A stretch of 64,000 nt of DNA, from NCBI GenBank assembly GCA_943736015.1, contig OX031060.1, positions 17,373,501 to 17,437,500 on the forward strand, read 5' to 3'. Positions 68 through 57,908 of the stretch are shown one piece after another. Each line of letters starts with the position of its first letter. Position 1 is the first letter of the stretch. This DNA is from Tridacna crocea. Its lineage: Eukaryota; Mollusca; Bivalvia; Cardiida; Cardiidae. Both the position numbers and the translations under genes were made by a program. The notes beneath the pieces were generated by a model. It saw nothing but the letters and a program-made list of their open reading frames with translations. It did no database searches and had not been told where the DNA came from.

Positions 68-296
68 TTAACCCATTACCACATAATCCTTACTTTTGAC
101 GCCCCTGAGAAAGAAGCCCTTTGAAAACACTGTGGGAAAAGGAGAAAATGCTGGTGACCAGCATTTTCTCCTTTTCCCACAGTGTTTTCTACACTTCCCA
201 GAACAAATTTCAATTTTTCAGTCACCTTTATTTTGTTGTCTGCAAATGCTTTCAATTTGAACCAGTCTAAAATTTTGTCGTGTGGTAAAGAGTTAA
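68..296 (+). mobile_element. TTAA hairpin MITE, family A (complete)
   Basis: Flanked by TTAA at both ends, with terminal inverted bases CCCATTACCA / GGTAAAGAG. Central hairpin GAAAACACTGTGGG...CCCACAGTGTTTTC around GGTGACC. The CACTGTG variant is present on both arms. Target and ends fit piggyBac-type non-autonomous elements. Confidence 0.85.
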
Positions 297-15800: not shown

Positions 15801-18800
15801 AAACAACAAAATTATAGACTGTTCTGTATTGAAAGCATTTACAGGGGACAAAAACAGTGTGACAGAAAAATTGAAATTTGCTCTCGGAAGGGAAGAAAAC
15901 ATTGTGGGAAAATGAGAAAATGCTGGTTACCAGCATTTTCTCCTTTTCCACACAATGTTATCAAAAGGCTTTTCTCTCGGATGTTAAATGTTGGGATTGT
16001 GTCATAACAAGTTAATTGAATGTATATAGAAATAAATCAGAAATTAACAGAATAAAAAGATTTTTTAAACATGATGGTAGTAATTTTGGTGGTGAAAAAA
16101 ATTAGACATCTCTCACTGTATCTCATTTTCTTGTCTTTCAAAAGGGTATATTGATTCTTCTTACATGCTTTAACCATTTGAGTGCTAATTACACCATCAG
16201 GTACATTAGCAGATAGTGAAGACAAGAACCAGACAGCACAAAATATGTAATCTGATCTTGAGTCTACCCTTTCTGCTTTTTATTATTTGACATTCTGGCC
16301 AAAAGAGGATTGAAGCCATGGTCTCCTGGTGTTTTAATGTCTATAAAGTTTAGATTGTGCTCTAGGGGGTTAAGCTGTGTTTACTTTCCTCTTTCCTCTA
16401 TATCAGAAATTGGCTTTTGGGTGGTATTCACTAACCATTTTGAACACTGAGTAAATTCTACATATCAAGATAAGTAATTTGATTAGGATAAGCAAAGTGC
16501 CCATGCTAATCAGATGGCTTGTCTTGAATCTTGGAATTACAACTTAAGTTTTTAACATTTAATGCACTGAATAATTATCTGAACCTTTTGTAATGGGAGA
16601 GAACAGCTGGAAATAGTGCTATTTCAAGGTTGTTTACCTTAGTACATAGTACAAGGTTGTGTAAATACCGGTAGTAGCAGATAGTGGAGATCAAAGATCA
16701 GACTTCACATTCTGTGCAGTCTGATCTTGATCTGCACTGTCTGCAAAAACAACTTAAGTCAGTTCTAGGGCTTTAAGAGTAAGTTAGAATTGTTGGTGAA
16801 CATGACCCTCGTATTTTCCTACATGCTCTGTGTTTGTGATCTGTGTTTAAGGATTAATACTTTCTTCAGATAAAAGTTCAGTTCAGGTATGAGCATATAA
16901 AGTAGAGCAGTAAACAGATTTTTTTTACAACATTGTAGTGTCTAGAATAAAAGTTATATCAGTCATATGTCAAACAAACTGCTTACCACTGCAGCAGACC
17001 ACTTTTGAAATAACTATGGCTAATTGAGACATTTTTGTCACTGGGAATATATCCTTCTGTCACCGGTACATGGCATAATTTTTGTTGTTTGTCCATGTTT
17101 TACAAGGATGTTTTCAAGGTTGTGTACAGAAGATTTGTTTCAGGATGTGTTGACCCTCAAAGTAGCCCATTCATTGGTATATTTGCCTTTGCAGCTAGTG
17201 TAGATCAAGATTAGAATGCACAAAACATGCTGTCTGATCTTTACCTACTCTGTCTACAATGCTAAGACATTCTGGACAAGAATAACTGCTATTACTTGGG
17301 TCTTGTTTCTATACTAGAGGTCACAGTTTGGCTAACTGCGTTAAGATGATTTACATAGATATAAGTATTACACAGGTTCTGTTACGACTCAAAGTGATTT
17401 ATTATAGGCTGCCTGTTAACCAAAATCAAAGTATAGATAGTATTAGAATGAATTAGAATACATTTATTTAATTTTAGAATGTTTTGATTGATATTTTTCT
17501 GCCTGTTTACTTCAATAGCAAAATATAGAACAGATGGGGAAATTAGACTTGATTGCTCCATAATTATGTACAGTACATTATGATGCAGTAGACTAGAACA
17601 GTATTAATAAAGATTTTCAAGCGAGTGTAGTGGTAAAGTTATTTTAGCCAAGTTTTTGTCGTGATATAATTTAACTCATTGCCACACGAGACAATTTTGG
17701 ACTGGTCTAAATTGAAAGCATTTGCAGACGACAAAATAAAGGTGACTGAAAAATAGAAATTTGTTCTGGAAAGGGTAGAAAACACTGTGGGAAAAGGAGA
17801 AAATGCTGGTTACCAGCATTTTCTCCTTTCCCCACAGTGTTTTCAAAAGGCTTCTTTCTCAGGGGCGTCAAAAGTAGGGATTGAGTGGTAATGGGTTAAA
17901 TACCGTTGAAAATGAGATCAACTGCCTTTCAAATATATAGGTCCTTGTTAAGTTTCCATGATCTTATCAACTCATTTCCAAACAACAATATTTTAGGCTT
18001 GTCCAAATCGAAAGCATTTTCAGACAACAAAATAAATGTGACTGAAAATGTGAAATTTGTTTTGAGAAGAGCAGAAAACATTTGTAACCAGCATTTTCTC
18101 CTTTTCTCACAATGTTTACTTCCCTTCCTATAACAAATTTAAATTATTTTGTCACATTCATTTTGTCATCTGCAAATGCTTTCAATTTGGACCAGTCTAA
18201 AATTTTGTCGTATAGAAAGTGTCAAACATATTCTGTTCATTTGTACACTTGTATAATGTCAAATACAGAAAAAGCAGGAAAAGGATTTGAACGGAAGCAT
18301 CAAAGTTTGTTTAGTTTCTCTCCCATAAACATTCATGTGGTATAAGAGTTACATACTGGTACTGTCAAATAAGATGAATATGTACCCAAATTTTAAACAG
18401 GTGCAAGCTCATTACTCCTTGCAGATAAGTTTTTTAGCTGCACTGGCCAAAGGCCTGCGAGCTTGAATCCTATAGAATGTTTCATAGTTAACAAAACTTG
18501 TAATACATTGTAACGTATATTACTTAGTGCCAGACAAAGTAACTGAGAAAAAGCCAGGTATAAATTATCCGTCACTCTTTTCCTGATTCTCTCAAACTGA
18601 GAGAGTTTTTAGAAGAAAACATATGAAAGAGGTTCTTTCTAGATCTGATCTGTATTTGATATAAGTTTTATGTTACTTGCAATTCAAAATTAAAAATGGT
18701 GAGATGAAACTTTGCTTGGTTAGCCCTTTACCACATGACAAAATTTTAGCCTAATCGAAATTAAGAGCATTTTGCAGATGACAATTTCAATGTGGCTCAA

Positions 18801-21800
18801 ATGGGGAAGTCTTTCTTTGATAGAGTAGAAAACATTGTGGGAAAAGTAGAAAATGCTGGTTACCAGCATTTTCTACTTTTCCCACAATGTTTTCATTAGG
18901 CTTTCTTCAAAGGGACATTAAAAGTCAGCATTATACGGTAAAGGGTTAAAATATTTTCTAGAAAAAGCAAGTATTTATATACAGGTAGGCTTTTTTTGCC
19001 CAAGTGTAGAAAAAAGACTTGCTGTATAATGCTAGTAATTGCTTTTTGTCATTTACTTTCCCATATCATTCAAATGATTATCATGTTTGTATTCTTACAA
19101 TGCTTGTCCTAGTGAGACATTGATATTTGAAAAAAAAAATAGGCTGGTTTTTAAAGAATTGAAAAGAGAGCTCCGGAAAAGAGTTGATTCAATTGTGTCC
19201 ATCCGTTATTTCTATATTGATTACACCATGTCACTATGTTGTTATACTGTGATGAATGGTTTACAACCGGAATGTTTTAGCATGAATTTTTGATGTTTGA
19301 ATGATTGTTATGTGAATATGCACATGTTTTCCTCATGGTAGATCCAAAAAAATTGTGTTGCATTTTAACTCTTTACCATATGGCAATGTTTTAGACTTGT
19401 CTAAATTTAAACCATTCGTACAATCGAAAGTAAATGTAACTGAAAACTTATACTGCTTTTTGGAAGGGTAGAAAGCATTGTGGGAAAAGGAAAAAAATCC
19501 TGATTATCAGCATTTTCTTGTTTTCCCACAATGTTTTCAAATGTCTAATTTCCCAGGATGATTAAGTCTTGATTGTATGGTAAAGAGTTAAACTGTGAAA
19601 ACCTGATTACTATAATCACGAGGAAAAATAAGTAATGAAAAAAAATGCTTGCATGGCTATATAATTCCAGACTATGGGAATAAAAAGAATTTTTTCAGAG
19701 TAATTGTGTTTTTTTAAGTGTTATCACTAATTATGGTTATGTGCTTGTATGACACAAATTCTTTGCATGACAACAATTTCATCATCTACAGGCTAAGTCC
19801 TCATGCTACTACTACAAAATTCTTAATTCTTTTTTAGTTCATTCATTCTATTCTTTGCCATATTCTAATCTTTTTTTTCTCTTGTAATGTATAAAAATTA
19901 TTGTTAAATATTAGTACATGTATCTAGGATTTAGTAGCATTGTTATCATAGAACTCTTTGCACTATTAGCTACTAGCAGACTTCTGTGCAGAAAGTTTAG
20001 ATATATATTCCCTGCAGTCTGATTTTGAATCTGCGCCATTCAGTTTTATTGTAAAATATTCATATTAAAAAAGGCACAGCTTTGTATTTTCTTTGTCACA
20101 ATTACAAACTGAAATTAAATGTATGTTATCTACTACACAAAGTGTATCACCAAATACTCCTGTCTTTTTATGACCTGGAAGAAAGATTTAGAAATCCTTG
20201 TAGATAAAGGAGAAAATGCTAGTGACCAGCATTTTTTCCCTTTCCAACTATGTTTTCCACCCTGTTACGGATGTTTAACCCTTTCCCAAACAAGCCCTGG
20301 TTTTTACATGTCTGCAGAACAAGTCTTTTGAAAACACTGTGGGAAAAGGAGAAATTGCTCGTAACGAGCAATTTCTCCTTTTCCCACAGTGTTTTCTACC
20401 CTTTAGGAGAACTTTCTACCATTTTCATCAAATTTAAAATTGTTGTCTGCAAACTCTTTCAGTTTGAAAGAGTCTAAAATTTGTCGTTTGGGAAAGGGTT
20501 AATATAATTTGAACCATGTTAAATTTGCCATCTGCAAATGCTTTCAGTTTGGACGAGAATAATTTTTTTTTATCTGGTAAAGATCTTTTGTTCTCAAATC
20601 TATGCAGGAAACATAGTGGAAGAAGAAAAGAGAAATTGCTTATCAGCCACAGAGCAATTTTAAACACTATAATTATTTTTGCTAGATAATTAAAAGAAGA
20701 AGAATATTTTCCGCTACTAAAGCTTGAAAAGCTTTGATGAACTCTTTACCACACAATCCGGTGTTTTAACAACAGTTAGTGATAAAGCTTTTGAAAACAT
20801 TGTGGGAAAAGGTGAAAATGCTGGGAACCAGCATTTTCTCCTTTTCCCACAATGTTTTCTACCCTTTCCAAATCAAGTTTCATTTTTTGGTTCACATTTA
20901 TTTTGTCATCTGCAAATACTTTCATTTTGGACTAGTCCAAAATTTTGTCGTTTGGTACAGAGTTAAGTGGTAAAGCAGTACTAATTGTTGGTTTGTTTCA
21001 CTGATCACAGGTGAGGAGGCAGATGATGCCGACCTCGAGGCCCCCAAAGTCTATGAGCCTGTTGAAACTTTAGACCAACTGGCAGAAAAATTAAATTCTT
21101 ACATGGAACAGTACAATGAAACTGTGAGAGGTGGTAAAATGGACCTGGTGTTCTTCAAGGTAAGTCGACAGAAACCAAACCATTTGACACCTAAACTCTG
21201 TACCGAACATTTCAGAGTTTTAATGACCCTAACAAAATAACCTTTTGAAAACATTTACATACCATGCTCTACACATTCAAGAGCAAATTTTGAATTGTTG
21301 TTCGCAGATTTCGGCAATATCAACTTTTTCTACTAGTTCAATGATGAATTCCATAATTGAAGCTCCTTTTAATTTGGTGTCAGTAAATGATTTCAGTGTG
21401 CACCAGTATGTAGTTTTGTAAAGAGATAAAACTTGGTTTTCATTTGAAGCAAATTGGTCGGAGAACTAAAATCAAAACTAACATTAATAAATATTTTATA
21501 CATAAAAATCTTGCGGAAACATAATGGGAAAAGGAGAAATTGCTTAAAGCAGCATAGATGTTTTCTTGTGTCCCAATGATTTTGCAGATTTTTATGTATT
21601 AGACCTTCATTCATACTGATACATATCTAGGCAAATTTATGTTAATGGAGAAATGAGTTAACCCTTTAACACACAAGTTTTAACAACCTTGAGGATAAGT
21701 CATTATGAAGACTGTGGGAAAAGGAGAAACTGTAGGTATCCTGAGAAAAGGAAAGATTCCAGGTAACCTGCATTTTCTCCTTTTCCCACAATGTTTTTTA

Positions 21801-30800: not shown

Positions 30801-33800
30801 AGAAATTTCAAATTTTCAGTCTCTTTTATTTTGTTGTCTTAACCCTTTACTCCATAGATACTCATTTCTACGCATTGCTTGTATGAGCCTTTGGAAAACA
30901 TTGTGGCAAAAGGTGAAATTGCTTGTGACAAGCAATTTCAACTTTTGCCACAATGTTTTCTACACTATTAAAAAGTGTCATATACACATAAGAAATGGCT
31001 TCATCCTTGCTATTATTTAGGGTCAATTAGAGATACCATAGAATGCCTTAAGGTGTTAAAGGGTTAAAATGCTTTCGATTTAGACCATTCTAAAATTTAG
31101 TTGTTTGGTAAAGAGTTAAGTGTTCTTTACACTGTTTTTCCTTTTCTTTAAAAGGCTTTACTGGATGATGCAGAAGCATGCCGTAGAAAGATGACAAATG
31201 CTACAGCTCTGATTGAAGGTCTTGGCGGTGAGAGAGTCAGATGGACTGCTGCGAGTCAAGGGTTTGAAGCCCAGATTCAGAGACTGGTTGGTGATGTACT
31301 GCTCTGCACAGGATTTTTGTCATATTGTGGACCCTTCAACCAAGAGTTCCGTACTTTACTCAACAAGGGATGGAAGAAAGAAATGGTGGCAGCCAAAATT
31401 CCATTTACAGAGGTTTGCATGTCTTTTACTTATATTTATGTTTTTCAAATCAGTGTGACTCTACCTCTGGAAAAAAAATACCAAAGTGAATGAATTTACA
31501 TAATATTATAAAGAATAAAAGAAAATCAAAACATTTTCAAATAGTTATCAGACATGAACACAACTTGATTCTTATTTCTTGAATCTGCAAAAAGCTTTTG
31601 AAAGTATTGTCAGTAAGAGAAAAGGCCTTGTTCAGATATTTTATGTAATGTAATTAGTGGTATATCTTTTACAGCGTTAAACATATCATACTACAAATTT
31701 AAAGTAACAATAAAGCCCAGGAGTAAACAAAGTGGGTGTTTAAATGCATTTGAATTTATATGTTACCATTTAAAAGTATTGAAATTATTGTGAAGATTAC
31801 AATCTGTCATTGTGCGGTCGGTCCAACTTTTACTTGGGGAAGGCAAGTTTATTTCAAAAATAGGTTAAAACCTGTCAGATAGCTTTTCCTTTTTTTACTT
31901 GTTGCGAGATGTTAAAATGCTTTTTTTTGCCACCAACTAGCATATTACAGAACCACAAGATAACTGACTGTCACTTTCACATTATGTTTTCATCCTTTTA
32001 CATGGTATGATTCAAATTTAAGTGTACTACCTATGTCACCTGCTTTAATTTTCTGGCCTTTAATGTGCTTTTATAGAGGATATGTACTTGAGGAAAAAAA
32101 AGAGAAGCAATGGACAGAAAACAATTTTTTTTTGTTGATTTTATCATATAATAATATATGAAATATATAATCTTATTCTTTTTTCAGGATTTGAATCTAG
32201 TGAGCATGTTGGTGGACAATGCAACCATCAGTGAGTGGAACCTGGAAGGATTGCCCAATGATGATTTGTCCATCCAGAATGGTCTTATTGTAAACAAAGC
32301 TGCCCGTTACCCATTGCTCATTGACCCTCAAGGTCAAGGAAAGATCTGGATCAAGAATAGGGAATTGAAAAATGATATGCAGGTATAGGATTTTCTTCTG
32401 ACAAATTTTTAAATATGTTAAAGAGGACAGTCAGATTCAGTGTGGTTCAAATTATTAAGATTTGTCTTGGAAGGGAAGAAAACATTGTTGGAAAAGGAGC
32501 AAATGCTAGTTACCAGTGTTTGCTCTTTTTACAACAATGTTTTTTAAAACCATCTTCCTCAGGGTTGTTAACCCTTTACTCCATAGATACTCATTTCTAC
32601 ACATGGCTTGTAAGAGCCTTTGGAAAACATTGTAGCAAAAGGTGAAATTGCTCGTGTCGAGCAATTTCACCTTTTGTCACAATGTTTTTTATGCTATCAA
32701 AAGGTGTCGTATACTCATAAGGAACGGCTTCATCCTTGCTGTTATTAGAGTAAATTAGAGATACGTTAGAAATGCCTTATGGGGTAAAGGGTTAAAACAC
32801 CTAGTTAATTGCTAAAAGATTCAGATGTATTATGAAGTATTTTTAATTTTTACTACACTTGGATTTCTCTACATTTCCATAGATCAGAGAAATTGTCCAT
32901 AGAGCCCTCTACTGTCAGTTGTCTGATGTGGTTCGAAGAAAAGTATCTTACAAGTCAATATTGTATTGTTATCCAGGTAACATCATTGAACCACAAGTAC
33001 TTCAGATCTCACCTGGAAGACTGCCTGTCTCTTGGTCGACCACTTCTGATTGAAGATGTTGGAGAAGAGTTGGACCCTGCCCTGGACAATGTACTGGAGA
33101 AGAACTTCATCAAGAGCGGTTCCACTTTCAAGGTACAGTGAGAAGTCTGCATATCTTAACTGACAAACCTATCTCTTCATTTTTGTTTCACATAAACTCT
33201 TTACCACACAATCTTGACTTTCAATCACCCTGAGAAAAAGACCTTTTGAAAACATTGTTGGAAAAGGAGAAAATGCTGGTAGCCAGCATTCTCTCCTTTT
33301 CCCACAATGTTTTCTACCCTTCTCAAACCAAATTGCAATATTTGAGTCACATTTATTTATTGTCTGCAAATGTGTTCAATTTGGACCGGTCTATAATTTG
33401 GTAGAGTTAAAGTGATAAATAAAACTTGTGATACTGATAAATCGACAATAAGGATATCTCTTTACAAAACAGGTAGACAACATTTATGTACATGAAAAGA
33501 GATCAATGGAAAATGAATATACCATAATATTTCAGTAATATGCTTTTGACATTTTGGTTAAATAATGTCCTGTTAAATGACAGATAAAACCATTTAATTC
33601 ATTTTTAGCTCCACTGGCCAAAGGCCAGCGAGCTTATGTCATGGCCCGTTGTCCGTCGTGGGTCCGTCCGTCCATGCGTTAACTTTTTCTTTAAACATCT
33701 TCTTCTCTGAAACTACCCATCCAATTTTGATGAAACTTCACAGAAATGATCCTGCCATGGTCCTCTTCAGAATTTCTTGAAAGAATTTAATTCCTTCAAA

Positions 33801-36800: not shown

Positions 36801-39800
36801 CATTATGCGATGATTTCTTCTCACAAGGAACTTGAACAAGAAAGAACTCACCTGTTGGAAGAGGTCACTGCAAACAAACGTAAGATGCAGGAGCTTGAAG
36901 ATAACCTTCTGTTCAGGTTGACTTCTACTGAAGGGTCCCTTGTGGAGGATGAGTCCCTCATTGAGGTATTGAGGACAACCAAACAGACTGCTGAGGAAGT
37001 CAGTGAGAAATTGAAAATTGCTGCAGAAACAGAGATCAAGATCAACTCGGCTCGTGAGGAATTTAGACCTGGTAAGAGGCTCTTGATTTTATGTCTTCTG
37101 CTTTAAATTTTTGCCAAATGACCAAGTCTAAGACTTGTCCAGATTGAAACCATTTACAGACGACAAAAATAAGTTTGACTCAACAGTTGAGGTTTAGTTC
37201 AGTTTAAATATTTTTATTTTACATTGATTGAGAAACAAGTTCTTACAACTTACACTAATTTCTCTTGATTCCGCTTCCTGGGTACTACAACAGTACTAGT
37301 GGTGAATGTGTGGGCCGATGAAAAATCCCAAAGTTGACACCCACTCACGAGTATCAGACTCAGGACCTTATGGTTGCGAGGCGGATTCTCTACCTCACAA
37401 CCATGTATCAAGTATTCATTATGATAATATTTATTCTTACAAATTTTCAGTATCCTTATAAGTCAGCAAATTTTCAGGATATTACAAGTTTAAGGCCAGT
37501 TCAATTTTTGATAAGGTATCTAAACATTTAAACGTTTATTTTTCTTCTAGTGGCCAATAGGGGCAGCATCGTGTACTTCCTTATCGTCGAGATGAGCATG
37601 GTAAATGTTATGTACCAAACCTCCCTACGTCAGTTCCTTGGACTGTTTGACCTGTCCATGGAACGCTCTCAGAAATCACCCATCACAGGAAAGCGTATCC
37701 AGAACATCATTGACTACCTAACATTTGCAGTATTTGCCTATACTGCCAGAGGCTTGTATGAGAAAGATAAGTTTTTGTTCACGATTTTGATGACACTCAA
37801 GATTGAGATGAACAGTGGACGTCTATCTCACAGTGAATTCCAGTGCTTTATCAAAGGTTGGTATTGTAATTCTGATGGTAGACTCTATAAAAATTGTGTA
37901 GAGTTTATTCTGCTAACTCACTGTCTTCTGTGAACAGATTTTAGCTCTCCCTTTTTTTTTTTTGTGAAAAATAATTAATCCTTTACCACACAGTGACGAC
38001 TTTTAACGCCCTTGAGGAAAAAGCCTTTTGAAAACATTGTGGAAAAAGGAGAAACTACTGGTAACCAGCATTTTCTCCTTTCCCACAAAGTTTTCCACAC
38101 TTTGCATTATTTGAGCCGCTTTTAAATTGTAGTCTGCAAAAGGTTTCAATTTGGATGATTCTAAAATTATCCCATGTGGTAAAGGATTAACTCTTTACCA
38201 CGTGACAAAATTTTAGACTAGTCCAAATTGAAAGCATTTGCAGACGACAAAATAATTGTGACTGAAAAATTGAAATTTGTTCTGGAAAGGGTAGAAAACA
38301 CTGTGGGAAAAGGAGAAAATGCTGGTTACCAGCATTTTCTCCTTTTCCTACAGTGTTTTCAAAAGGCTTCTTTCTCAGGGGTGTCAAAAGTAGGGATTGT
38401 GTGGTAATGGGTTAAGGTATTGGCATAGCTTTATTGTTGTCTGCATGAATCTATTTAGCCTGCAACTCACACAAAGGGACATTGGGACATTGGCATAAAG
38501 TATCTTCTGGGATCAACCTGTGCAGTACGTGTAGGCTAATCCGAAACCACACTTTCTGTTTTATGTTATTTTCTGTTTTTTGCAAGCTCTTCTTTGTAGC
38601 ACAAAATTTAATGTAATCATAAAGTGCCATCATGGATTATCCTGCCTGGACTGCGCAAGCTGATTCAAGACTATACTTTACACAAATGTCCGAACCCCCT
38701 TTTCCCGTATTGCAGGCAATATCTGAACTCTTTACCAAACGACAAAATTTTGGACTAGTTCAAATTGAAAGTATTTGCAGACGACAAAATAAATGTGAAG
38801 CAAAAATTGAAATTTTATTAGGAAAGGGTAGAAAACATTGTGGGAAAAGGAGAAAATGCTGGTTACCAGCATTTTTAGCTCACCTGAGCAGGAAGTGCTC
38901 ATGGTGAGCTTTTGTGATCGCCCAATGTCCGTCGTCCGTCGTCCACAATTTCTTTAAACATCTTCTTCTCCTAACCACTAGGCCAATCTTGATGAAACTT
39001 GGCAGGGATGTTCCTTGGGTGATGCTCTACCAAAGTTGTTCAAGAGATTGAATTCCACCCATAATTCTGGTTGCCATGGCAACCAAAAGGAAAAAAATAG
39101 CAAAATCTTTGAAAATCTTCTTCTCTGAAACTAGAAGGCCTAGAGCTTTGATATTTGGTATGTAGCATCTCCGAGTGGACTTTTACCAAGGTTATTCATA
39201 TGATGCCCCTGGGGTCAAAACTAACCCTGCCCCGGGGGTCACAAGTTTGAAACATAGGAACAAAGAAGGAAAACTTTAAAATTCTTCTTCTCTGAAAGTA
39301 GAAGGTGCAAAGCTTTGATATTTGGTATGTAGCATCTCCTATGACCTCTACCAAGATTGTTCATATGATGCCCCTGGGGTCAAAACTGGCCCCGCCCCGG
39401 GGGTCACAAGTTTTAAACATAGGAACAAAGAAGGAAAACTTTAAAAAAATTCTTCTCTGAAACTAGTGGGTGCAGAGCTTTGATATTTGGTATGTAGCAT
39501 TTCCTAGTTGACCTCTACCAAGGTTGTTCATATGATGTCACTTGGGTCAAAACTGGCCCCGCCCCTGGGGTCACAAATTTGAAACATAGGAACAAAGAAG
39601 GAAAACTTTAAAATTCTTCTTCTCTGAAACTAGTAGGGGCAGGGCTTTGATATTTGATATGTAGCTTCTCCTAGTGGACCTCTACCAAGATTGTTCATAT
39701 GGTGTCCCTGGGGTCAAGTTTGAAACATAGGAACAAATAAGGAAAACTTCAAAATTCTTCTTCTCTGAAACTAGAAGTTTTAGAGCTTTGATATTTGGAA

Positions 39801-42800
39801 TGTAGCATCTCCTTGTGAACCTGTACCAAGATTGTACATTTGTTGCCCCTGGGGTCAAAACTGGCCCCGTCCCGGGGGTCACAAGTTTGAAACATAGAAA
39901 TAAAGAAGGAAAACTTTAAAATTCTTCTTCTCTGAAACTAGAAGATGTAGAGCTTTTATATTTGGTAAGTAGGATGTCCTTGTGGACTTCTACAATGTAT
40001 GTTCATATGATGTCCCTGGGGTCAAAACTGGCCCTTCCCCGTGGGTCATAAGTTCGAAATATAGGAACAGAGAAGGAAAACTTCAATATTCTTCTTCTCT
40101 GAAACTAAGTGGCATAGAGCTTTGATATTTGGTATGCAGCATCTCTTAGTGGACTTCTACAAAGTTTCTTCATACGATGCCCCATGGGTCAAAACTTGCC
40201 CTGCCCCAAGGGTCACAAGTTCGAAATATAGGAACAAAGAAGGAAAACTTCAATATTCTTCTTCTCTGAAACTAGTAGATGGCATAGAGCTTTGATATTT
40301 GGTATGCAGCATCTCTTAGTGGACTTCTACAAAGTTTCTTCATACGATGCCCCATGGGTCAAAACTTGCACTGCCCCATGGGTCACAAGTTCGAAACATA
40401 GGAACAAAGAATAAAAACTTTAAAATTCTACTTCTCTGAAACTAGAATGTGTAGAGCTTTGATATTTTGTAAGTAGCATCTCCTAGTGGACCTCTAGCAA
40501 GTTTCTTTTCTTAGGATGCCCCTGGGATCAAAACTGGCCCTGCCCAGGGGTCACAAGTTTGATTTTACAGCTTAATACTCAGGTGAGCGATATAGGACCA
40601 TCATGGTCCTCTTGTCTCCTTTTCCCACATTGTTTTCAAAGGCTTTCTTTTTCAGGGTCGTTAAAAATCAGGATTGTGTGGTAAAGGGTTAAGGACATGT
40701 AACCCTCAGAAAGATTTTTGTCACAGTAATGCCCTCATGGAAACTTAAAAATGTTTATAATGTTCAACAATTTTTCTTCTAACCATGATTTATTCGCATG
40801 TATTTTTGTAGTAAACAATTATCATAGATTATGTGACTATGCCGCAAGTATGCTTTTGGAGGTATAAAGTTATTATTAAATTTTGTCCATGCATACTTAT
40901 GGTCAATTAAGTTTGTATGTGTTTCTAAAGCTGTTTGTAGATTCAAAATGAGACTAAGTGGTTTTGAAATGAACTATGAGAAATTCCAGAGAGTGCAACA
41001 TGTAGAATCATCTTGCATATACATTAAATTTTTATCTTCATGTACACATTCCAGGTGGTGCTGCTCTGGACTTAAATGCTGTAGAGCCCAAACCTAGGAA
41101 GTGGATTTTGGACCTGACATGGCTTAACTTGGTGGAATTGAGCAAACTACCTCAGTTCTCTCAGATTCTGACACAGATTGCAAGAAATGATAAGGCATGG
41201 AAGGCGTGGTTTGACGAGGATGCTCCTGAAGAATGTCCACTGCCTGATGGGTATTCCACTACCTTGGATACTTTCCGTAAACTGTTGCTCATCAGGAGCT
41301 GGTGTCCTGACAGATGTATACCCATGGCTAGAAAATACATAGCTGAAGCTATGGGTGTCAGAGTAAGTCAATAATGAATAATACGTAGATGTGTATAAGC
41401 TTCTATTACAGTTGATTGTTGTGACATTGAATTGATCAAGATATATTTTATTTCAGTGCCAGATATTGTGTTATACAATAAATGATAATAATAATATAAT
41501 TCTCAAGCTTTTATAGGGATCACTTACATATTTCTGTATGGGTTTATAAGCTACAACAGTTTTGCATAAACTGTTTACTATACTGTAAAACTCTAGATTT
41601 GTCCAAGTTGAAAGCATTTGCTGACCAAAAACTAAATGCAACGTGCACTATGCTGTCTGTAATAGGTCAGCAAACATTGTTGGAAAAGGAGAAAATGCTG
41701 GTATCCAGCATTTTCTCCTTTTCCAACAATGTTTTCCAAAGGCTTCTTTCTCAGTGTCTTTAACAGTTGGCATTGTGAGGTAAAGGCTTAAAGATCCATT
41801 TCCATTGGTCATTTCATTGCTCAGTGTGGCAATGTAACTTATTGTAAAACCATACATGATACATGTCACATATATATTTGGAGTGAATCTTTTAGGGTGA
41901 TTCGTAGCAAATTTTGAGTAGTATAGTTGATGAAGCTCAGACTTATTGTAAGGTATTGATGGTCTCATTAACTACTGTCTGGAAACAAAACAGGTACTTT
42001 TACAATGATTTTTTTTGTTTCAAAGGTTAGCCTGACTGATCACAGTATTCAAACCAGGAACATTTGATTTTTGAGGCTGGCACTTTACTATGATACCACT
42101 GTCCACTAGTAATGCTCAACTCGTCACCAAACAACAAAATGTTGGAATTAATGGGATAAACAGTGTCTGCAGTCGACAAATTAAATGTAGCTTAAATGAT
42201 AACTATATACTGTAGTAGGAATTGTTGAAAAGGGAGAAAATGGTGGTTTACTTGCATTTTCTCCTTTTCCCACAATGATTTCAAAGCCTTCTTCAGGGTT
42301 GTTAAAAACTTCAAATTAGGATAAAGTACATGCATTAATTGCTTAATAAATGGAGAATATTATTGGTAAGTACAGTTGTAATTTGGCTATGAGTAAAATA
42401 ATTATTGGTGAAATTTTCCAACACTTTACAGTTTGCTGAAGCTGTCATTTTGAACATGGAAGAAATGCATGCTGAATCCAACAAGAGGACGCCACTGATC
42501 TGTTTCCTGTCTGTGGGCTCAGATCCGACTGAAAATATCATGTTGCTGGCAAAGAAACTGAATTATCGTGAGTACTATTATTTATAATGGTGTAAAAGGC
42601 TTTAAAGGACAAGCATCATTAAAGACTTTTGGTGCTAAATAAGGGAATTTAGACTTTTAATCCTGTACCAAACGACAGAATTTGAGACTGGTCCAAATTG
42701 AAACCACTTGCAGACGAAAAAATTAACTTAACTCAAAAATTGAAAATTGTTAACTGCAGGGTAGAAAACATCGAGGAAAAAGGAAAATATGCTTGTTACC

Positions 42801-45800
42801 AGCATTTTCTCCTTTTCCCACAATGTTTTCAAAAGGCTTCTATCTCAAGGCTGTAAAAACCAGGGATTGTTTTGTAAAGAGTTAAGCCAAAAGCAAAGGG
42901 CCAAATTCTGTCAATTTAAAGGTAGCGATGTGGAAAAATATGTACTTGTCAGACAGTGTAGATCCAAGATCAGACTGCACATTATGTGCAGTCTGATCTT
43001 GGATCTACATTGTCTGCAAAAGGTCAGTAAGTCACGCTTTGCTGCCTAGGGGTGCACTGGTGCACTGGTGGTTTATGGCTTAAACATGGTCAAATATTGA
43101 ATAGATAATAGATTTATAGACTTCTCAATGTTGAAAGCATTTGTAGATGGCAGTTAACCCTTTACTCCACAGATACTCATTTCTACGCGTTGCTTGTATG
43201 AGCCTTTGGAAAACATTGTGGCAAAAGGTGAAATTGCTTGTGATGAGCAATTTCATCTATTGCCACAATGTTTTCTACATTGTCAAAAGGTGCCATATAC
43301 GCATAAGAAATAGTTTCATCCTTGCTGTTATTAAGGGTCAATTAGACATACTATAGAAATGCCCTAGGGGTAATGGGTTAAATTGGGTTCATATTATAAT
43401 AATGGCTTGCAACACGAAAACACAAAAAAAAAAACCAGGAAAAGGGGCATTCAGACATATATGTAAAGTTTCGTCTCGGATCAGCCTGCAGAGTCCATGC
43501 AGGATAATCCTAAACTACACTTTCCGTTTTTATGTAGTTTTCTGTTTTGTACAAGTCAACTGTGGCACAAAATCTAATGTAGTGGTAAAGTACCATCTCG
43601 GATTAGTCTGCACAGGCTAATCTGAGACGACAGTTTTTGCAAGTATCTAATGTCATTTTAGGGTGTTGCAAGTCATATGATTTGTCTTGAAAGCAAAGAA
43701 AATATTACAAGAAAAGGAAAGAATGCTGATTACCAGCATTTTCTTCTTCTCCACAATGTTTTTAAAAGCTGATTACCACAGAATAGTTATGTGAGAGAGC
43801 ATTTAGCAATCCAGTTCTTACCTTTTATTTCATGACCACAAACATTTCCATTTCAGACTGTAGTGCTATATCTATGGGTCAAGGTCAGGATGTCCATGCC
43901 AGGAGGTTGCTGTCTGTCTCCATGGCAGAGGGAAAATGGGTGCTCCTACAGAACTGTCACTTGGGTCTTGACTTCATGGATGAATTGCTTGAAACAGTAT
44001 GTACTAATGTACTTGTGTCTAGACACATGATATGTATATTAGTATAATATTCATTGCAAAACTGTTTACTCTTTACCACACAATCCCAACCTTTAACTCA
44101 TTACCAAATGACAATATTTTTGGCTTGTCCAATTTGAAAGCATTTGCAGACGACAAAATAAAAGGGACTGAAAATTAAAAATTTGTTTTGTGAAGAGAAG
44201 GAAACGTTGTTGGAAAAGGAGAAAATGCTGGTTACCAGCACTTTCTCCTTTTTCCACAATGTTTTCTTAAGGCTTCTTTCTCAGGGTCGTCAAAAGGAGG
44301 GATTGAGTGGTAATGGGTTAACGACCCTGAGAAAGAAAGCCTTTGAAAACATTGTGGGAAATTTTCTCCTTTTCCCACCATGTTTTGTGCCCTTTCCAAA
44401 TCAAATTTTGATTTTAGACTCACATTTATTTTGTCGTCAGCAAATGCTTTCAATATTTGGACTGGTCCAAAATTTTGTAATTTGGTAATGAGTTAAACCA
44501 TGGCCCATGGTTTTTTAAAACCTTGAATCGGTGTTCAGCTGAGTTTGGGCTCAAACTTTAAATTCTATTTGTGCTTCTTGCAATTAACACAGTGAGAAAG
44601 ACTTTCTTTTAAGAAGAAGAAAAATGAAGCGTGAAAAGTTAAAAAGTTACTCTGTTGGGTTATCAAATTATTTCTGTATATTTGTTAAATTTCATTCTCC
44701 GTGAATTTTTAAGTGGCAAAGGTTTTATAAGCACATACCCTTTAATTTTTCACCAAACAAACTCTACATCTGTCCATTTAGCAAGCTTATGCAGAAACAT
44801 ATTAGATGTGGATCAAAGGAATGGATTTAACATTGAAAGCCTAGAAAACATTGTGAAGTAGGAGAAAATGCATGTCAACCAGAATTTCTCTTTTTGCCTA
44901 TGTACATTCAATAGCATCCTTTCTTAGAACGGTAAAAACATGGTATTATTTGGCCTGCAACATGCGAAAAGGAGCTTTGGGATATTCATGTAAAGTTTTG
45001 TCTGGGATAAGCCTGTGCATTCTACGTGAACTGCGCAGGCTGATCCGATAGGACACTTTACACAAAATTAATGTCCAAATGTCAGTTTTCAAGTGTTGCA
45101 GGCCACAAAATGCAAGAAAGGAATTTTAAAGTATGGGAAAAGTGTACGAAAAGGATAAGAGGAAAGAAAAAGTCAAATGTAAAGTAATCGGTTGTATGAG
45201 AATCGAAGTTGAAACATTGAGGCAAAAGGAGAAATTACTTGGTACTAGTACTTTCTGCTTTTGCTGTAATATGCTGACATATTTAAAGCAGTATTTAATT
45301 TCTCAGGCAGAATAACACAAAGAAAGAAATATGTAGTGAAACAACTCCATTTTGACTTTCTAGGTCACTGGCACTGAGTCAGTCCATGATGGTTTCCGAT
45401 GCTGGCTTACATCAGAGGAGCATGTTAAATTCCCCATAAACCTCCTACAGTCCTCCATCAAGTTCACCAATGAACCTCCTCAAGGAGTGAAAGCTGGGCT
45501 CAAGAGAACTTATGCTCTTGTCACACAGGTTTGTCTTTCTGTCTGTCCCATTTTGTCATGGTTTATTATACAAGCAGTCATTAAGTTTACTGTCTGATCT
45601 TTATCTTCTTTTTACAAAAAGATGACACAGTATTGAACATGTTGTGCTGAGAAAAAAAAAAGATATTTAGGGAAATTCATGGAACAGAAATCATTTAACC
45701 CTTTACCCCATAAGGCATTTCTGTGGTATCTCTAATTGACCCTAAATAACAGCAAGGATGAAACCGTTTTTTATGGGTATATGACACCTTTTGAAAGCAT

Positions 45801-48800: not shown

Positions 48801-51800
48801 TGGGTAATATGTATACAACGGTTTTTTTTGGAAAAGGAGAAAATGCTGCATACTTGCATTCTTTGCTTTTTTAAGAACATTTTCTGAAGCTCTTTACCAC
48901 AGAGTCACCAAGACATATCAAAATTGTTTGCTGAAGTCTATAATTGTTCTAGATCAGATTGTCATCTAGGAAACATCATCATATGTAACCAGTTTTTGTG
49001 TCCTCAGCTATGTTTAGTTGCAAGGATGTACAGCCAAACCCGTGTTTGCAACTATGGTACTTGATCTCTATAGCCAACAGCACTTAGCATTGACTATTTT
49101 GTGTTTCCAGAATCATAGTTTTTACTCTTTTTAGTGTAAAAGAACCAGTGTTGAATTGATAGTTATTTGTCATTAGAGTTGCACTTAACCCATTACCACA
49201 CAATCCCTACTTTTGACGCCCCTGAGAAAAAAGCTTTTAGAAAACATTGTAGGAAAAGGAGAAAATGCTGGTAACCAGCATTTTCTCCTTTTCCCACAAT
49301 GTTTTCTACCCTTCACAAAACAGATTCCAAATTTTCAGTAACTTTAATTTTGTCGTCTGCAAATGCTTCCAATTTGGGCAGGTCCAAAATATTGTCGTTT
49401 GGTAATGAGTTAAACTGCAAAAATGTGTCACTTGTTTATAGTCATATAATATAATATGGTAACCAGGATTTCCTTCTTTTCCCGCAATATTTTCAAAAGG
49501 CTTCTTTTCCAGGGTCGTAAAAACCAAGGATTGTGTGGGAAAGGGTTAAATCTTGCCAGGTGACAAACTATGGCTGCTAAGCTGGAGTACTGGGGTCCCC
49601 ATCCTTATGAGTGCCATTTATTTATTAGCTTTGTTATGTAAGTTTCTTTTCTATTTCAGCTACTCTACAAACACAGCTAACACTATGTTAGAGACGATTG
49701 TGAACATTCAGCCAAAAGACTCCGGTGGCGGTGGTGGTGAGACTCGTGAGAGTGTAGTGTACCGACTGGCTGATGATATGTTGGAAAAACTACCTAATGA
49801 TTATATAGGATATGAGGTAACTTATTTCTGTATATTGGCTTTCATCTCACATTGAAAAGCTTTGATCAGTTACTATAAAAATATTGTACTAAAAAATTTG
49901 CAAATTTTATTGTTGCTTTTGTCTATAATATTTCAGCAAAGTAGACAATGTAAATTAAAGATCAGACTGTACATTTCTTACAAACTAATCTTGATCTACA
50001 TTAATTGCAGAGGCAGCTTGAATTGTAACAGGTGATTTAGGGTTTAATTCAAATTTTAATTCCTTCCCAAGCCTCCCTGGATCTACAAGTGTAAGCATGA
50101 AATTTTTTAGCATAAACTGTATTAGTGGTACCTTTGTGTTACATTGAAATTTTTGCGATTTCACAAATTTGAAAAATTCGTAAACTTTTCTGTTCACATA
50201 TTTTACCACAAGTATAAGAACAAATAACCAGTGCCTTAAATTCGCAAGCATTTCGGTACCCATGATGGCCATAACTGGTAATTTGCATACTTTTTGACAT
50301 GGGGATATATTCATGTGTACTTTACTGAGTTTTCTGTAAATACACTAGCAACTTGTTGTAAGTGGTCAGCAACGCTGATCTGCAGTAGCAGTATAACATT
50401 ATTTCCCCACTCAACAACCCACATCTCAACCCTGGCTGAGATCTATTTACCAAGTTACACCATTAGTTCCATAGCTTTTTACCACACAATCATGACTAAC
50501 ATCCCTGAGAAAGAGGCCTTTTGAAAACATTGTGGGAAAAGGAGAAAATGCTGTTAACAAGCATTTTCTCCATTTCCCACATTGTTTTTCTATCCTTCCC
50601 CGTATAAGTTTTAATTTCTAAGTCATCTTCATTTTGCCATATGCAAATGCTTTCAGCTTGGTCTTTATAAAATGTCCTTGCTTGGTAATTGGTAAAGGGT
50701 TGATCTCCAGTTATACATGTTTGTGGTCAAACATTCTACAAGCTGCTTATAAGCCCAGAACTATCTGTTACTCTACAGGTTAAAGAGAGACTGAGGAAGA
50801 TGGGTATACTACAGCCCATCAACATTTTCCTGCGTCAGGAAATTGACAGGATGCAGCGTGTCATCACTCGAGTTCGACTTGATCTCAAAGACTTGAAACT
50901 TGCGATAGACGGTACTATAATCATGAGTGAGAACCTGAGAGATGCCCTGGATAACATGTTTGATGCCCGTGTACCAACAACATGGAAGAAGGCAAGTTTT
51001 ATATTTGTTCTTTTTTTCCAAGCAAATATGAGACCAAGTGTCGTATTCACCCACTGTTCTAAACTGATTCTTAAGTCTGATTCTCAAGAAATTTTCTAAA
51101 GTTCAAAGTAATGCATTATCTGATTTCCTAAACCAAACTAAGCAGAAACTATGCTGTATACAAAAGTTTTAACTTTTTACCACACAATTACGACTTTTAA
51201 CAACCCGGAGAAAGAAACCCTTTGAAAACGTTGTGGGAATAGGAGAAAATGCTGGTAACCAGCATTTTTCTCCTATTCCCACAATGTTTTATACTTTCCC
51301 TAAGTAAATTTCAAATTTTTAGTCACATTTATTTTGTCGTCTGCAGATACTTTCAATTAGAACCAGTCTGTAACTTTGTCATTTGCTAAACAGTTAGACT
51401 ACAACAACAATGCAATTTAGAAATCGCCCTAAGAAATCCCGAAAGATTATTTCTCATTCTTATTGTTTTTTTTTCCAAATGACAAAGTTTCAGACATGTC
51501 CAAATTCAACGCATTTGCATAAGCTAAATTAGCGTGACTCAAATGTTGAAGTTTATTTTAGAAAGGGTAGTAAACATTGTGGCAAAAATTGCTTGTATTA
51601 CACACAAGGTAAATAAACAAACAATTGGAAGGTAGTGCATGTCAACAAGAAAGAAAACACTGTAAGAAATGGAATGAATGCTTGTAACAAATTGCTAGTG
51701 TTCTAGTGACATTATGCGCAACTGTCCACAGCAGGGCATGAGGATGTATTTGTTAAACATTTACAAAACTGTCCAGAGTACCGGTATTTATTCTCCTGAG

Positions 51801-54800
51801 GGAGAAAGCTTTAGAAAAGCTTGTGAAAAATATAGAACGTTGGTACCAACATTTTCCCCCTTTCCAACAATGTTTTGTACTCTTTAAGGCCTAAAAAACA
51901 AAACCTGCATTTAGGGTTTCCTAACACTACCTAGAAAATGCTGCCCATCCTAAACTTTTTACCCTGTTGTTGCATTCTGGTTTTTTTTTTCAGGTGCCAT
52001 TGTGGTACATGGTCCATATAAAAAAAATCTGAAAAAACAAGAAACCCATACCTACCCTACCTACAGCATCTTGGACAAAAACCCTAAACACCCATATTAT
52101 TTGTTAGGTCTTATGTAATTACTGTTAATTTGGACAAGTAAAAAATTTTGTCATTCAGTAAAGACTTAAAAATCAATATCTTACCTGCCTATATGTATAT
52201 ATCTGCCTTTATGCTTCTCAAGACCATTGCATCATCTCTTTTTATAATAACCCTCTAAATAATTTCAGATCTCCTGGGAGTCTGCCACTCTTGGATTTTG
52301 GTTTACTGACCTACTAGACCGTAATCAACAGTTCCATACATGGCTGTTTGAGGGACGTCCCAGTACCTTTTGGATGACTGGTTTCTTCAATCCAACTGTG
52401 AGTGGTTGCTTCTGAAAATCTGATATCATTATCTTCTGTAACAATTTCCAGCAGGCAATTTTTAACTCTCCATGAAAATACGAATCCTTAACCCTTTACC
52501 AAACAATCCTGACCTTTGACAACCCTGAGGGAAAAGGTTTTTGAAAACATTGTTGGAAAAGGAGAAAATGCTGGTGACCAGCATTTTCTCCTCTTCCCTC
52601 AATGTTTTCTATCCTGATGAAGACAAATTCCAATATTTAATCTATATTCACTTATTTGCCTTCAATATTGATATATCCATAATTCCATTGTGTTGTAAGG
52701 GGTTAAAATACCTTATACTGTAAAAGAAAAAACACACATTTTAAACTAGAATTCAAAGTGCAATATCAAGGTTACCTTTGTCTAGAATGTCTTGTTGAAA
52801 TTGACAGTGTAGATCAAAGATCACACTTCATGTTCTGTCTAGCCTGATCTTGAGTTACATAAGCCACAAGGGTAAGAAAAGTAATGCAAGAGATATTAAC
52901 CCTTTCCCAAACGACAAAACCTTATACTGGTCCAAATTGAAAGCACTTGCAGATGACAAAATTAACATAACTAAAAAATTGAAATTTGTTTCCAGCAGGG
53001 TAGAAAACATTGTGGGAAAAGGAGAAAATGCTGGTAATGTTTGTTAAAGGGTTGAACTTGTCGACAAAAATGTTATTAAATACTTTTTTATTTCAAATAC
53101 CAATTTATCTTTGAAAGGAACATATTTCTTGTTGCCTAAATAAAATGTTTTAGCTGATCAGTAATCACATGATCGGTGACTAGGATCCCAGTTTTATACA
53201 ATACTTCTATAGGAATTTCTTGCATATTTCAGGGCTTCTTAACAGCTATGAGACAGGAAATCACCCGAGCCCACAAAGGTTGGGCTCTAGACTCTGTGAT
53301 ACTGGATAATGACGTAACCAGGATGATGAAGGAAGATGTACACAGTCCACCAAATGAAGGTTTGTGCAGTTTTACACCATTCCTGCTTTAATTGTGTTAA
53401 CCCTTTACCAAAAGACAAAGTTTTGGACTTGTCAAAATTTAAAGCTTTTGTAAACAACAAATTTTATGTAACTCAGAGTTTGAAGATGAATTTTGATTTT
53501 CTGCTGGTTACCAGCATTTTCTCCTTTTTCCACAATGTTTTCAAAAGGCTTCTTCCTGATGGTCATGAAAACCAGGGATTGTTTGGTGAAGTGGTGTTTT
53601 GCTCTGATCTTGCTTTGCACAGCCAGCATTTTGCTCCAACTTTCAACACTATTCTAGTCAATTAATGGTTATTTTTTTCGTGTTTCCAATTCCAGGCCTG
53701 GGTACCACAGTGCCTACCCTAACGCACTTTGTTTCATGAAGAAATGACTTAATTTCAATCCACTACCACAAAATCTTAGCTTATAAAACAACCTGTAAGA
53801 TAAGAGCCTTTGGAAACATTGCTGGTGACCAGCAGTTTTTACTTTTTCCATAGTGTTTCAGTATATAAACCACTTTAAACCCTTAAAGTCTCTTTCACAA
53901 CTATAATTGCTTTTGTGTCCAGTGTAGATCAGTATCAAACTGCACAAAATGAGTATTCTGATCTTGATCTGCGCTGTCTGCCTTGCTTAGGCATTTTAAG
54001 ACAAAATTAATCTTGACTATGCATGTACTTTGGTCTAATTTCTAGTTTAAAATGTATATAATGTTTATTTCACTAAGGGTTAAACTGTTTTCTTTAACCC
54101 TTTACCCCATAAGACATTTCTATGGTATCTCTAACTGACCCTAAATAACAGCAAGGATGAAGCCATTTATTATATGAATATGACACCTTTTGATAGTGTA
54201 GAAAACACTGTGGCAAAAGGTGAAATTGCTCGTCACGAGCAATTTCACCTTTTGCCACAATGTTTTCCAAAGGCTCTTACAAGCAATGCGTAGAAATGGG
54301 TATCTGTGGAGTAAAGGGTTAACTCTTTCAGCACCAAATAAATAAATTTTACCTCTTTGGACAGCTCTAAATACAATCTTTTGGAAATTACTCAGATTTT
54401 GATGCTATACAATTTACAACACAAGTTGACAATATTGTCTGTCTAGTTTGATCTTGATCTATACTGTCAGCAAAGGTCACTTTATTATATACCTAGCAGT
54501 GAAATCTTGGAATTTTCCAGTGTAATAAATTTTGATATCATCACTAGTGACGATATCAACTTTCACTTTCACTTCCTGCCGTAACTTAGGAACTAAAGAT
54601 ATCCGAAAGGTATATAATAAATAGAGGATATTTGTATTTTTCGGTGAAAGATCAATATTTATTTCATCGAGTGAACAACATCGGTAATATTTTCACGAGT
54701 GACGCAGCCATGAGTGAAAATATTGCCGATGGTGTTCACGAGATGAAATAAATTTCCATCTTTAACCGAAAAAAAAAAAATTTTCTATTTATCTCATGCT

Positions 54801-57559: not shown

Positions 57560-57908
57560 TTTTCATCTTGAAGCAGACCATTTTTTAAATCAGTGTGACA
57601 CAAGGAGAAAATGTTTGAAAGGAGCAATTTCTCCATTGCCATTTTTTCAGATGTTTTCAGAGAACCCTTACTCAAATTGAACACCCACAAAGAAGAAATT
57701 GCTGGTAACCAGCATTTTCTGCTTTTTGGATGAAAACAGTGTGTGAGAAAAGCAGAAAATGCTGGTAACCAGCATTTTCTGCTTTTCTCGCACACTGTTT
57801 TCTACCCTTTCCAAATCATATCTCAATTTTTGAGTCACATTAATTTTGTCGTCTGCAAATGTTTCAATGTGGAATAATCTAAAATTTTGTTGTTTGGTAA
57901 AGGTTTAA
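57560..57908 (+). mobile_element. Hairpin MITEs, overlapping fragments with a GCAG stem
   Basis: Two or three pieces; the clearest hairpin is 57731-57803 (CAGTGTGTGAGAAAAGCAG and mirror around GGTAACC) with a normal A right arm ending GGTAAAGGTTTAA. A second AGCATTTTCTGC sits just before it. Confidence 0.65.

What the first reader, a model, noticed from the sequence alone, without database searches (positions are those of the whole stretch)
18828..18894. Hairpin arms change together: paired differences between copies
Individual copies differ from the consensus stem at the same place on both arms, so pairing is kept: GTAG/CTAC (18720 copy), GTTGG/CCAAC (41566), GGGAATAGG/CCTATTCCC (51169), GCAG/CTGC with GAG/CTC (57731), GAGCAAA/TTTGCTC (32418), CACTGTG/CACAGTG (68, 17671, 38187) and, in unrelated family D, GATCCAAG/CTTGGATC (42882). 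Independent point mutation would not do this. It suggests arm-to-arm correction (for example copying around the hairpin during replication or repair) or selection for a perfect hairpin during transposition.
Basis: partly seen in the sequence, partly recalled or inferred. Interest (0 to 1): 0.8.

Follow-up and report, generated by a model that had tools for sequence, protein, structure and literature searches.

The report
Transposon hairpin arms mutate in pairs
A very common 228-base mobile element in this genome carries a perfect DNA hairpin whose two arms often carry matching mutations, partly inherited from ancestral copies and partly, it seems, because one arm is occasionally copied onto the other at individual loci.

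Summary
The hairpin at 18828-18894 (33+1+33 nt, fully complementary) lies in a ~228-bp TTAA-flanked MITE with an extrapolated 0.6-0.9 million copies. In 201 copies with both arms, 108 paired changes occur where independence gives 32. Two causes must be separated. (1) 59 of the 108 are of types that mark lineages: CACTGTG/CACAGTG (68, 17671, 38187) marks a subfamily, and four paired changes mark a sister family with unrelated filler DNA. There, pairing is kept by the spreading lineages. (2) Others recur at single loci. Genome-wide, the 18720 change (pair 20, G:C to T:A) has 114 copies against 5 expected and 9 for a matched unpaired double; the 51169-type change 38 against 6; a paired one-base deletion 17 against about 2.6. 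Carriers sit in unrelated outer backgrounds, so they are not one master lineage. The 57731 core occurs once in 1.05 Gb. The likely cause is rare arm-to-arm copying: for these three changes about 1-6% of mutated hairpins carry the change on both arms. I found no multi-site tract and no loop inversion, which favours short-patch correction. Homogenisation of inverted-repeat arms is known; its scale and countability here are new to me.

The parts
18720..18949 (+). MITE copy holding the finding: TTAG at the left and TTAA at the right end (TTAA-type target duplication), TIRs CCCTTTACC / GGTAAAGGG, internal hairpin
18828..18894 (+). perfect hairpin, 33-nt arms, 1-nt loop; pair 20 changed on both arms (GTAG/CTAC)
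   Evidence: it is one of 114 exact genome-wide copies of the paired core
41670..41736 (+). hairpin of the 41566 copy: pair 12 changed on both arms (GTTGG/CCAAC)
51224..51290 (-). hairpin of the 51169 copy: pair 17 changed on both arms (GGGAATAGG/CCTATTCCC). It has an extra A on one arm, so it is not itself one of the 38 exact genome-wide copies of the paired core
57732..57802 (-). hairpin of the 57731 copy: pairs 8 and 20 plus a 2-nt insertion shared by both arms; its 45-letter paired core (insertion and pair 20) occurs once in the genome
57689..57727 (-). second, shorter hairpin remnant beside the 57732-57802 hairpin; its 5' arm has the same pair-20 C, its 3' arm does not
32478..32544 (+). 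hairpin of the 32418 copy: pairs 12 and 23 changed on both arms, among several unpaired changes
123..189 (-). hairpin of the inherited 8 C:G subfamily (CACTGTG/CACAGTG)
17778..17844 (+). hairpin of the inherited 8 C:G subfamily
38294..38360 (+). hairpin of the inherited 8 C:G subfamily
54095..54322 (+). copy of sister family A: same ends and hairpin block, unrelated filler, hairpin consensus differing by four paired changes (14, 21, 26, 31); other window copies at 12163-12396, 30839-31066, 32568-32794, 35829-36058, 43154-43380, 45696-45924
42950..43016 (+). family D hairpin with an extra base on the 3' arm that pairs with the 5' arm; four of five other aligned window copies lack it

Best explanation
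The hairpin is the core of a piggyBac-like MITE. Its pairing is kept at two levels. In the lineages that spread, a perfectly paired hairpin is retained (most likely because the element needs it to propagate), so subfamilies differ by paired changes. In ordinary, decaying copies each arm mutates on its own, and now and then a one-arm mutation (substitution or small indel) is copied onto the other arm in place. The likely route is a transient hairpin or cruciform in which the mismatched stem pair is repaired in a short patch, or in which the nascent strand briefly uses the other arm as template. Shown: paired excess over matched unpaired doubles, paired deletions, occurrence in unrelated backgrounds, one genome-unique multi-change copy, and clustering of paired changes in the same copies. 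Inferred: that the change happens in place, the physical repair step, and the need for the hairpin in transposition.
For: Exact 39-mer counts in the whole genome: consensus 152335; pair 20: 5'-only 835, 3'-only 919, both 114, independence 5.0, matched unpaired double 9; pair 17: 5'-only 1076, both 38, matched unpaired double 6; one-base deletion in the AAAA/TTTT run: 5'-only 626, both arms 17, about 2.6 expected if the unmeasured 3'-only count equals the 5'-only count. Ancestry test on outer sequence (mean residual from an additive distance fit; negative means more related): 0.0013 for 17TA (38 of 38 copies), -0.0050 for 20TA (40 of 114), against -0.030 for 8 C:G (12 copies) and -1.24 for family A (8 copies), which are real lineages. 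57731 paired core: 1 genome match. Other paired changes at stem pairs 1-14, 8 C:G cells left out: 31 paired vs 162 unpaired in 95 paired-change copies, 2 vs 71 in 55 control copies, Fisher p 0.003. Family A against main consensus: all four stem differences are paired while the filler is unrelated.
Against: Correction is rare: 828 one-arm cells against 108 paired in the sample; in the six closest copy pairs 10 one-arm and 0 two-arm differences. No loop inversion in paired copies: centre A in 8 of 95 against 5 of 55 controls. No correction tract: in the 27 paired-change copies with a further paired change, unpaired changes are as common between co-corrected pairs (13 of 112 cells) as outside (30 of 233). 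Automatic alignment found no real shared indel in 185 sampled copies; the 57731 insertion was seen only by reading. The 20TA group has a slight excess relatedness (fraction of shuffles at or below it 0.014), as have the deletion group (0.054) and the control doubles (0.028), and 3 of 9 neighbour comparisons among listed 20TA places are duplicated segments. The paired copies are not clearly older (p 0.047 against consensus, 0.15 against one-arm copies, 0.08 against control doubles). The clustering of paired changes could partly reflect copy age.
Confidence: 0.75

Rival explanations
1. All paired variants were inherited from a few master copies; nothing happens at individual loci.
For: True for 8 C:G and for the 14/21/26/31 set: the copies share outer sequence; 59 of 108 paired cells are of such types.
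Against: 17TA and 20TA copies show almost no excess relatedness; among 17 of the first 20 17TA copies no two are closer than 17% in the outer sequence; the 57731 paired core is unique.
Confidence: 0.1
2. Hairpin-to-hairpin gene conversion between copies spreads paired variants into unrelated backgrounds.
For: Would explain rare paired alleles in unrelated outer sequences and the slower divergence of the hairpin between copies (0.032 and 0.049 for the two arms against 0.064-0.139 in other blocks for pairs 0.06-0.10 apart).
Against: The private mutation rate in the hairpin is about 0.3-1.0 of the outer rate (my division of the counts), so replacement by the common consensus hairpin is limited; a rare allele (114 beside 152335) could hardly spread this way; one-arm variants at pair 17 (1076) and 20 (835 and 919) persist; 17TA occurs with and without 8 C:G and with other private changes.
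Confidence: 0.1
3. Selection for a perfect hairpin, at each locus or in source copies (two independent point mutations, the second favoured).
For: Between families all four stem differences are paired while filler is unrelated; the hairpin differs less between copies than the other blocks.
Against: For scattered decayed copies, selection locus by locus on some 600000 hairpins is implausible, and source-lineage selection predicts clusters of relatives, which are not seen for pairs 17 and 20. It remains the best account of the changes between families.
Confidence: 0.15
4. Chance double mutation plus unequal copy ages.
For: Many sampled copies with a paired change also hold several unpaired ones; 22.9 of the 49 non-lineage paired cells are expected by chance.
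Against: Matched unpaired doubles at neighbouring positions are 6 and 9, against 38 and 114. The matched positions may differ somewhat in mutability; their own one-arm counts were not measured.
Confidence: 0.03

Closest known systems
Template-switch mutations that fix hairpin stems (Monttinen and Loytynoja 2022, PMC8794818; outline, abstract and passages seen)
   Same: A change in one stem half is copied to the other, giving compensatory pairs in one event.
   Different: There RNA genes with ancestral reconstruction; here a DNA transposon hairpin with 152,335 identical cores; no multi-site tract or loop inversion found here.
Inverted-repeat arm homogenisation by template switching in yeast (Abraham and Hazkani-Covo 2021, PMC8604942; outline, abstract and passages seen)
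   Same: Imperfect inverted repeats become perfect; the same event can recur independently.
   Different: Yeast events were detected as multinucleotide changes, with some spacer inversions; here the changes counted are single-site, and inversion of the 1-nt loop is not enriched.
Quasipalindrome correction (Ripley model, seen as a citation in PMC8794818; experiments in E. coli and yeast seen in a search listing only, PMC7202029, PMC3820800)
   Same: Family D copy 42950 and the 57731 copy look like an imperfect palindrome made perfect, indel included.
   Different: No parental sequence to compare with here.
piggyBac-type MITEs (their ends are recalled, not from a call)
   Same: TTAA at both ends, TIRs starting CYCTTTACC, ~228 bp, very many copies.
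   Different: A long perfect internal hairpin more conserved than the filler; no transposase was sought.

Membership tests
Inverted-repeat arm homogenisation (template switch / quasipalindrome correction) | Excess of complementary double changes over matched unpaired doubles | tested here: met
   114 vs 9 and 38 vs 6
Inverted-repeat arm homogenisation (template switch / quasipalindrome correction) | Indels transferred as well as substitutions | tested here: met
   17 paired deletions vs about 2.6 expected under equal arms; 57731 shared 2-nt insertion
Inverted-repeat arm homogenisation (template switch / quasipalindrome correction) | Locus-specific, recurrent origin | tested here: met
   Almost no shared ancestry of carriers; unique 57731 core
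Inverted-repeat arm homogenisation (template switch / quasipalindrome correction) | Contiguous copied tract covering several sites | tested here: inconclusive
   Paired changes cluster in the same copies (31:162 vs 2:71) but unpaired changes are not depleted between them (13/112 vs 30/233)
Inverted-repeat arm homogenisation (template switch / quasipalindrome correction) | Spacer inversion (expected for intermolecular switching only) | tested here: not met
   Centre A in 8 of 95 paired copies vs 5 of 55 controls
Inverted-repeat arm homogenisation (template switch / quasipalindrome correction) | Change in one step from an imperfect parent | not testable with these tools
   No orthologous genomes at hand; the tool states that this genome has no relatives here
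piggyBac-like MITE | TTAA target duplication | tested here: met
   Alignment of 24 copies with flanks; family A likewise
piggyBac-like MITE | Short TIRs, small size, high copy number | tested here: met
   228 columns with TIRs; 170 hits in 200 kb, 117 with the whole hairpin
piggyBac-like MITE | Mobilised by a piggyBac transposase with matching ends | not tested
   No autonomous partner was sought

The most novel reading that the evidence does not exclude
The genome keeps proofreading hairpin DNA against itself: extruded stems in hundreds of thousands of decayed transposon copies undergo single-site mismatch correction (no tract, no loop inversion), a general mutational process that produces apparent compensatory evolution without selection, at a countable rate of a few percent of one-arm mutations.
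Probability: 0.35. Interest if true: 0.75.

Novelty: new variant of a known kind. Interest (0 to 1): 0.52.

Why it matters
Paired substitutions in stems are normally read as a sign of selection on a structure. Here they arise repeatedly in scattered, decayed transposon copies, where selection is implausible, and the 152,335 identical hairpin cores make the rate countable in one genome. This is a natural assay for how often, at what distance from the loop and in which direction inverted-repeat arms correct each other, and a caution for finding RNA genes by covariation in repeat-derived hairpins.

Tried and rejected
Rfam: no match at gathering threshold. Hairpin protected from mutation in place: suggested by ten-column conservation means of 0.90-0.94 inside the hairpin against 0.63-0.89 elsewhere and by pairwise differences, but the private rate is about 0.3-1.0 of the outer rate depending on the bin, so much of the contrast is variation between source lineages. 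One-event tract copying: not supported. Loop inversion: not enriched. Shared indels by automatic alignment: two entries in 185 copies, both from truncated arms, not real. Taxon: another repeat in the sampled stretches reminded me of bivalve genomes; this is recall only and was not tested. Literature on this MITE: nothing found with the searches (open-licence library only). Limits of the counts: the 3'-only numbers for pair 17 and for the deletion were not measured and are taken as equal to the 5'-only numbers; control doubles lack their own one-arm counts; the 40 20TA copies were picked from the first 100 listed of 114; the 20 consensus copies come from the first 1.6 Mb of C1 and the 20 one-arm copies from C1 and C2; pair 31 T:A was counted among the lineage types although only one of its carriers listed is in family A.

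Full report
What is there. The finding's coordinates hold a perfect inverted repeat, arms 18828-18860 and 18862-18894 with one base between. It is the centre of a ~228-bp element with TTAA at its ends and inverted termini CYCTTTACC / GGTAAAGRG. The window is part of a 1.05-Gb genome. A profile of the element gives 282 deduplicated hits in the 64-kb window plus 20 stretches of 10 kb: 112 in the window (about 32% of its bases) and 170 in the 200 kb (about 14%); 84 and 117 hold the whole hairpin. Scaled up, that is some 0.6 million copies with a hairpin and 0.9 million hits; the 20 stretches were set by coordinate, not drawn at random. Exact copies of the 39-nt hairpin core number 152,335.

Is the pairing more than chance? 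In the 201 copies with both arms, 6,633 pair cells split into 5,049 consensus, 828 with one arm changed, 108 changed on both arms and complementary, 61 changed on both and not complementary, 587 gapped; independent arms predict 32 complementary. Double-changed cells number 169 in register and 68-81 when the partner is slid by 1-3 columns.

Two origins. 59 of the 108 paired cells are of types that mark lineages. The 8 C:G change (68, 17671, 38187 and others) is carried by copies with related outer sequence (residual -0.030 for 12 copies; 8 of 500 random draws as low), and the 14/21/26/31 set by eight copies that form a separate family (-1.24; 0 of 500). That family, A, has the same ends and the same hairpin block as the main family but filler between them that does not align beyond chance by eye (mean outer distance 0.54), and its hairpin consensus differs from the main one by four stem changes, all four paired. 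So in lineages that spread, the ends and a paired hairpin are kept while the filler is free. I infer that the hairpin matters for propagation. The other 49 paired cells exceed the 22.9 expected.

Genome-wide test of single changes. With all other core bases fixed, pair 20 G:C to T:A (the 18720 copy) has 835 copies changed on the 5' arm only, 919 on the 3' arm only and 114 on both; independence gives 835*919/152335 = 5.0, and a matched double in which the 3' change sits one pair over has 9. Pair 17 A:T to T:A (the change of the 51169 copy, which itself has an extra base and is not among the exact matches): 1,076 5'-only, 38 both, matched control 6. A one-base deletion in AAAA/TTTT: 626 5'-only, 17 both, 2.6 expected if both arms mutate equally. 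The share of mutated hairpins that carry the change on both arms is 6% for pair 20 and, taking 3'-only as equal to 5'-only, near 2% for pair 17 and 1% for the deletion.

Are these master lineages? I fetched all 38 of the 17TA copies, 40 of the 114 20TA copies, all 17 paired deletions, all 15 control doubles, and 20 each of one-arm and consensus copies. Outer distances fit an additive star model with little group structure: mean within-group residual 0.0013 for 17TA, -0.0050 for 20TA (fraction of shuffles at or below it 0.014), -0.0102 for deletions (0.054) and -0.0126 for the control doubles (0.028). The same kind of test finds the two real lineages. Some 20TA places lie close together; 3 of 9 neighbour comparisons are duplicated segments, the others are not, so a few of the 114 are not independent. 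The 57731 copy shares two substitutions and a 2-nt insertion between its arms; the 45-letter part of this paired core that holds the insertion and pair 20 occurs once in the genome. So paired changes arise repeatedly at single loci.

How it might work. Paired changes gather in the same copies: in the stem outside the fixed core, 31 paired to 162 unpaired in the 95 paired-change copies, 2 to 71 in the 55 controls, Fisher p 0.003; an effect of copy age is not excluded. Yet unpaired changes are not depleted between co-corrected pairs (13 of 112 cells against 30 of 233, in 27 copies), and the loop base is not inverted more often (8 of 95 against 5 of 55). A long template-switch tract predicts the first and an intermolecular switch across the loop the second. 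I therefore favour short-patch correction in a folded stem, with brief nascent-strand switching as the close alternative. Age does not separate the groups well (p 0.047 against consensus, 0.15 against one-arm, 0.08 against control doubles).

What limits the claim. Most mutations are not corrected: in the six closest copy pairs there are 10 one-arm and no two-arm differences; in the next 80 pairs 184 one-arm and 12 two-arm differences, all 12 paired in both copies, some of them probably the 8 C:G lineage. The hairpin differs less between copies than its flanks, but its private rate, judged against unanimous neighbours, is about 0.3-1.0 of the outer rate, so in-place protection is at most partial. 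Unbiased arm correction would not lower divergence anyway. No orthologues were at hand, so a one-step change was not seen, and 'in place' is an inference from the scattered backgrounds.

Comparison with print. Arm homogenisation of inverted repeats by template switching has been described in bacteria and yeast and proposed to maintain RNA stems (PMC8604942 and PMC8794818: outlines, abstracts and passages seen). I found no account of it in a MITE family in the searches, which cover open-licence papers only and which I judged from their listings. A bivalve transposon survey was checked by passages for MITEs; its main text has no occurrence of words beginning with hairpin or palindrom (PMC10294476).

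Noticed in passing
window 12163-12396, 30839-31066, 32568-32794, 35829-36058, 43154-43380, 45696-45924, 54095-54322: A sister MITE family with the same TTAA ends and hairpin block but unrelated filler between them; all four consensus stem differences from the main family are paired.
   Followed up: partly
window 57689-57802: Two hairpins side by side in one element copy, sharing the pair-20 change on the 5' arms; may be a local re-copying event.
   Followed up: partly
window 24189-24968: ORF matching the dynein motor region D4 (Pfam AAA_8, E 2.7e-43); part of the window's MITEs may sit in introns of a dynein heavy-chain gene.
   Followed up: partly
window 42950-43016; L025:8465-8533; L014:5253-5321: Family D hairpins: the L025 and L014 copies have the same 5' CCAAGATC but a 3' arm one base shorter than the 42950 copy.
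   Followed up: partly
L014:8188-8252, L014:5583-5649, L018:3081-3139, L025:6596-6662: Another hairpin family (GTCAGCCTGCGCA / GATTAGCCTGCGC) whose arms also differ in matched fashion between copies by eye.
   Followed up: no
hairpin arms, element columns 107-139 and 141-173: In copy pairs 0.06-0.18 apart the 3' (pyrimidine-rich) arm differs more than the 5' arm (0.049 vs 0.032, 0.073 vs 0.054, 0.095 vs 0.066); not explained, and the pairs are not independent.
   Followed up: no
L194/L195, L196/L197, L181/L182: Segments identical over 401 bp at places 85 kb apart (C1) and 113 kb apart (C13): recent segmental duplication or assembly redundancy.
   Followed up: no
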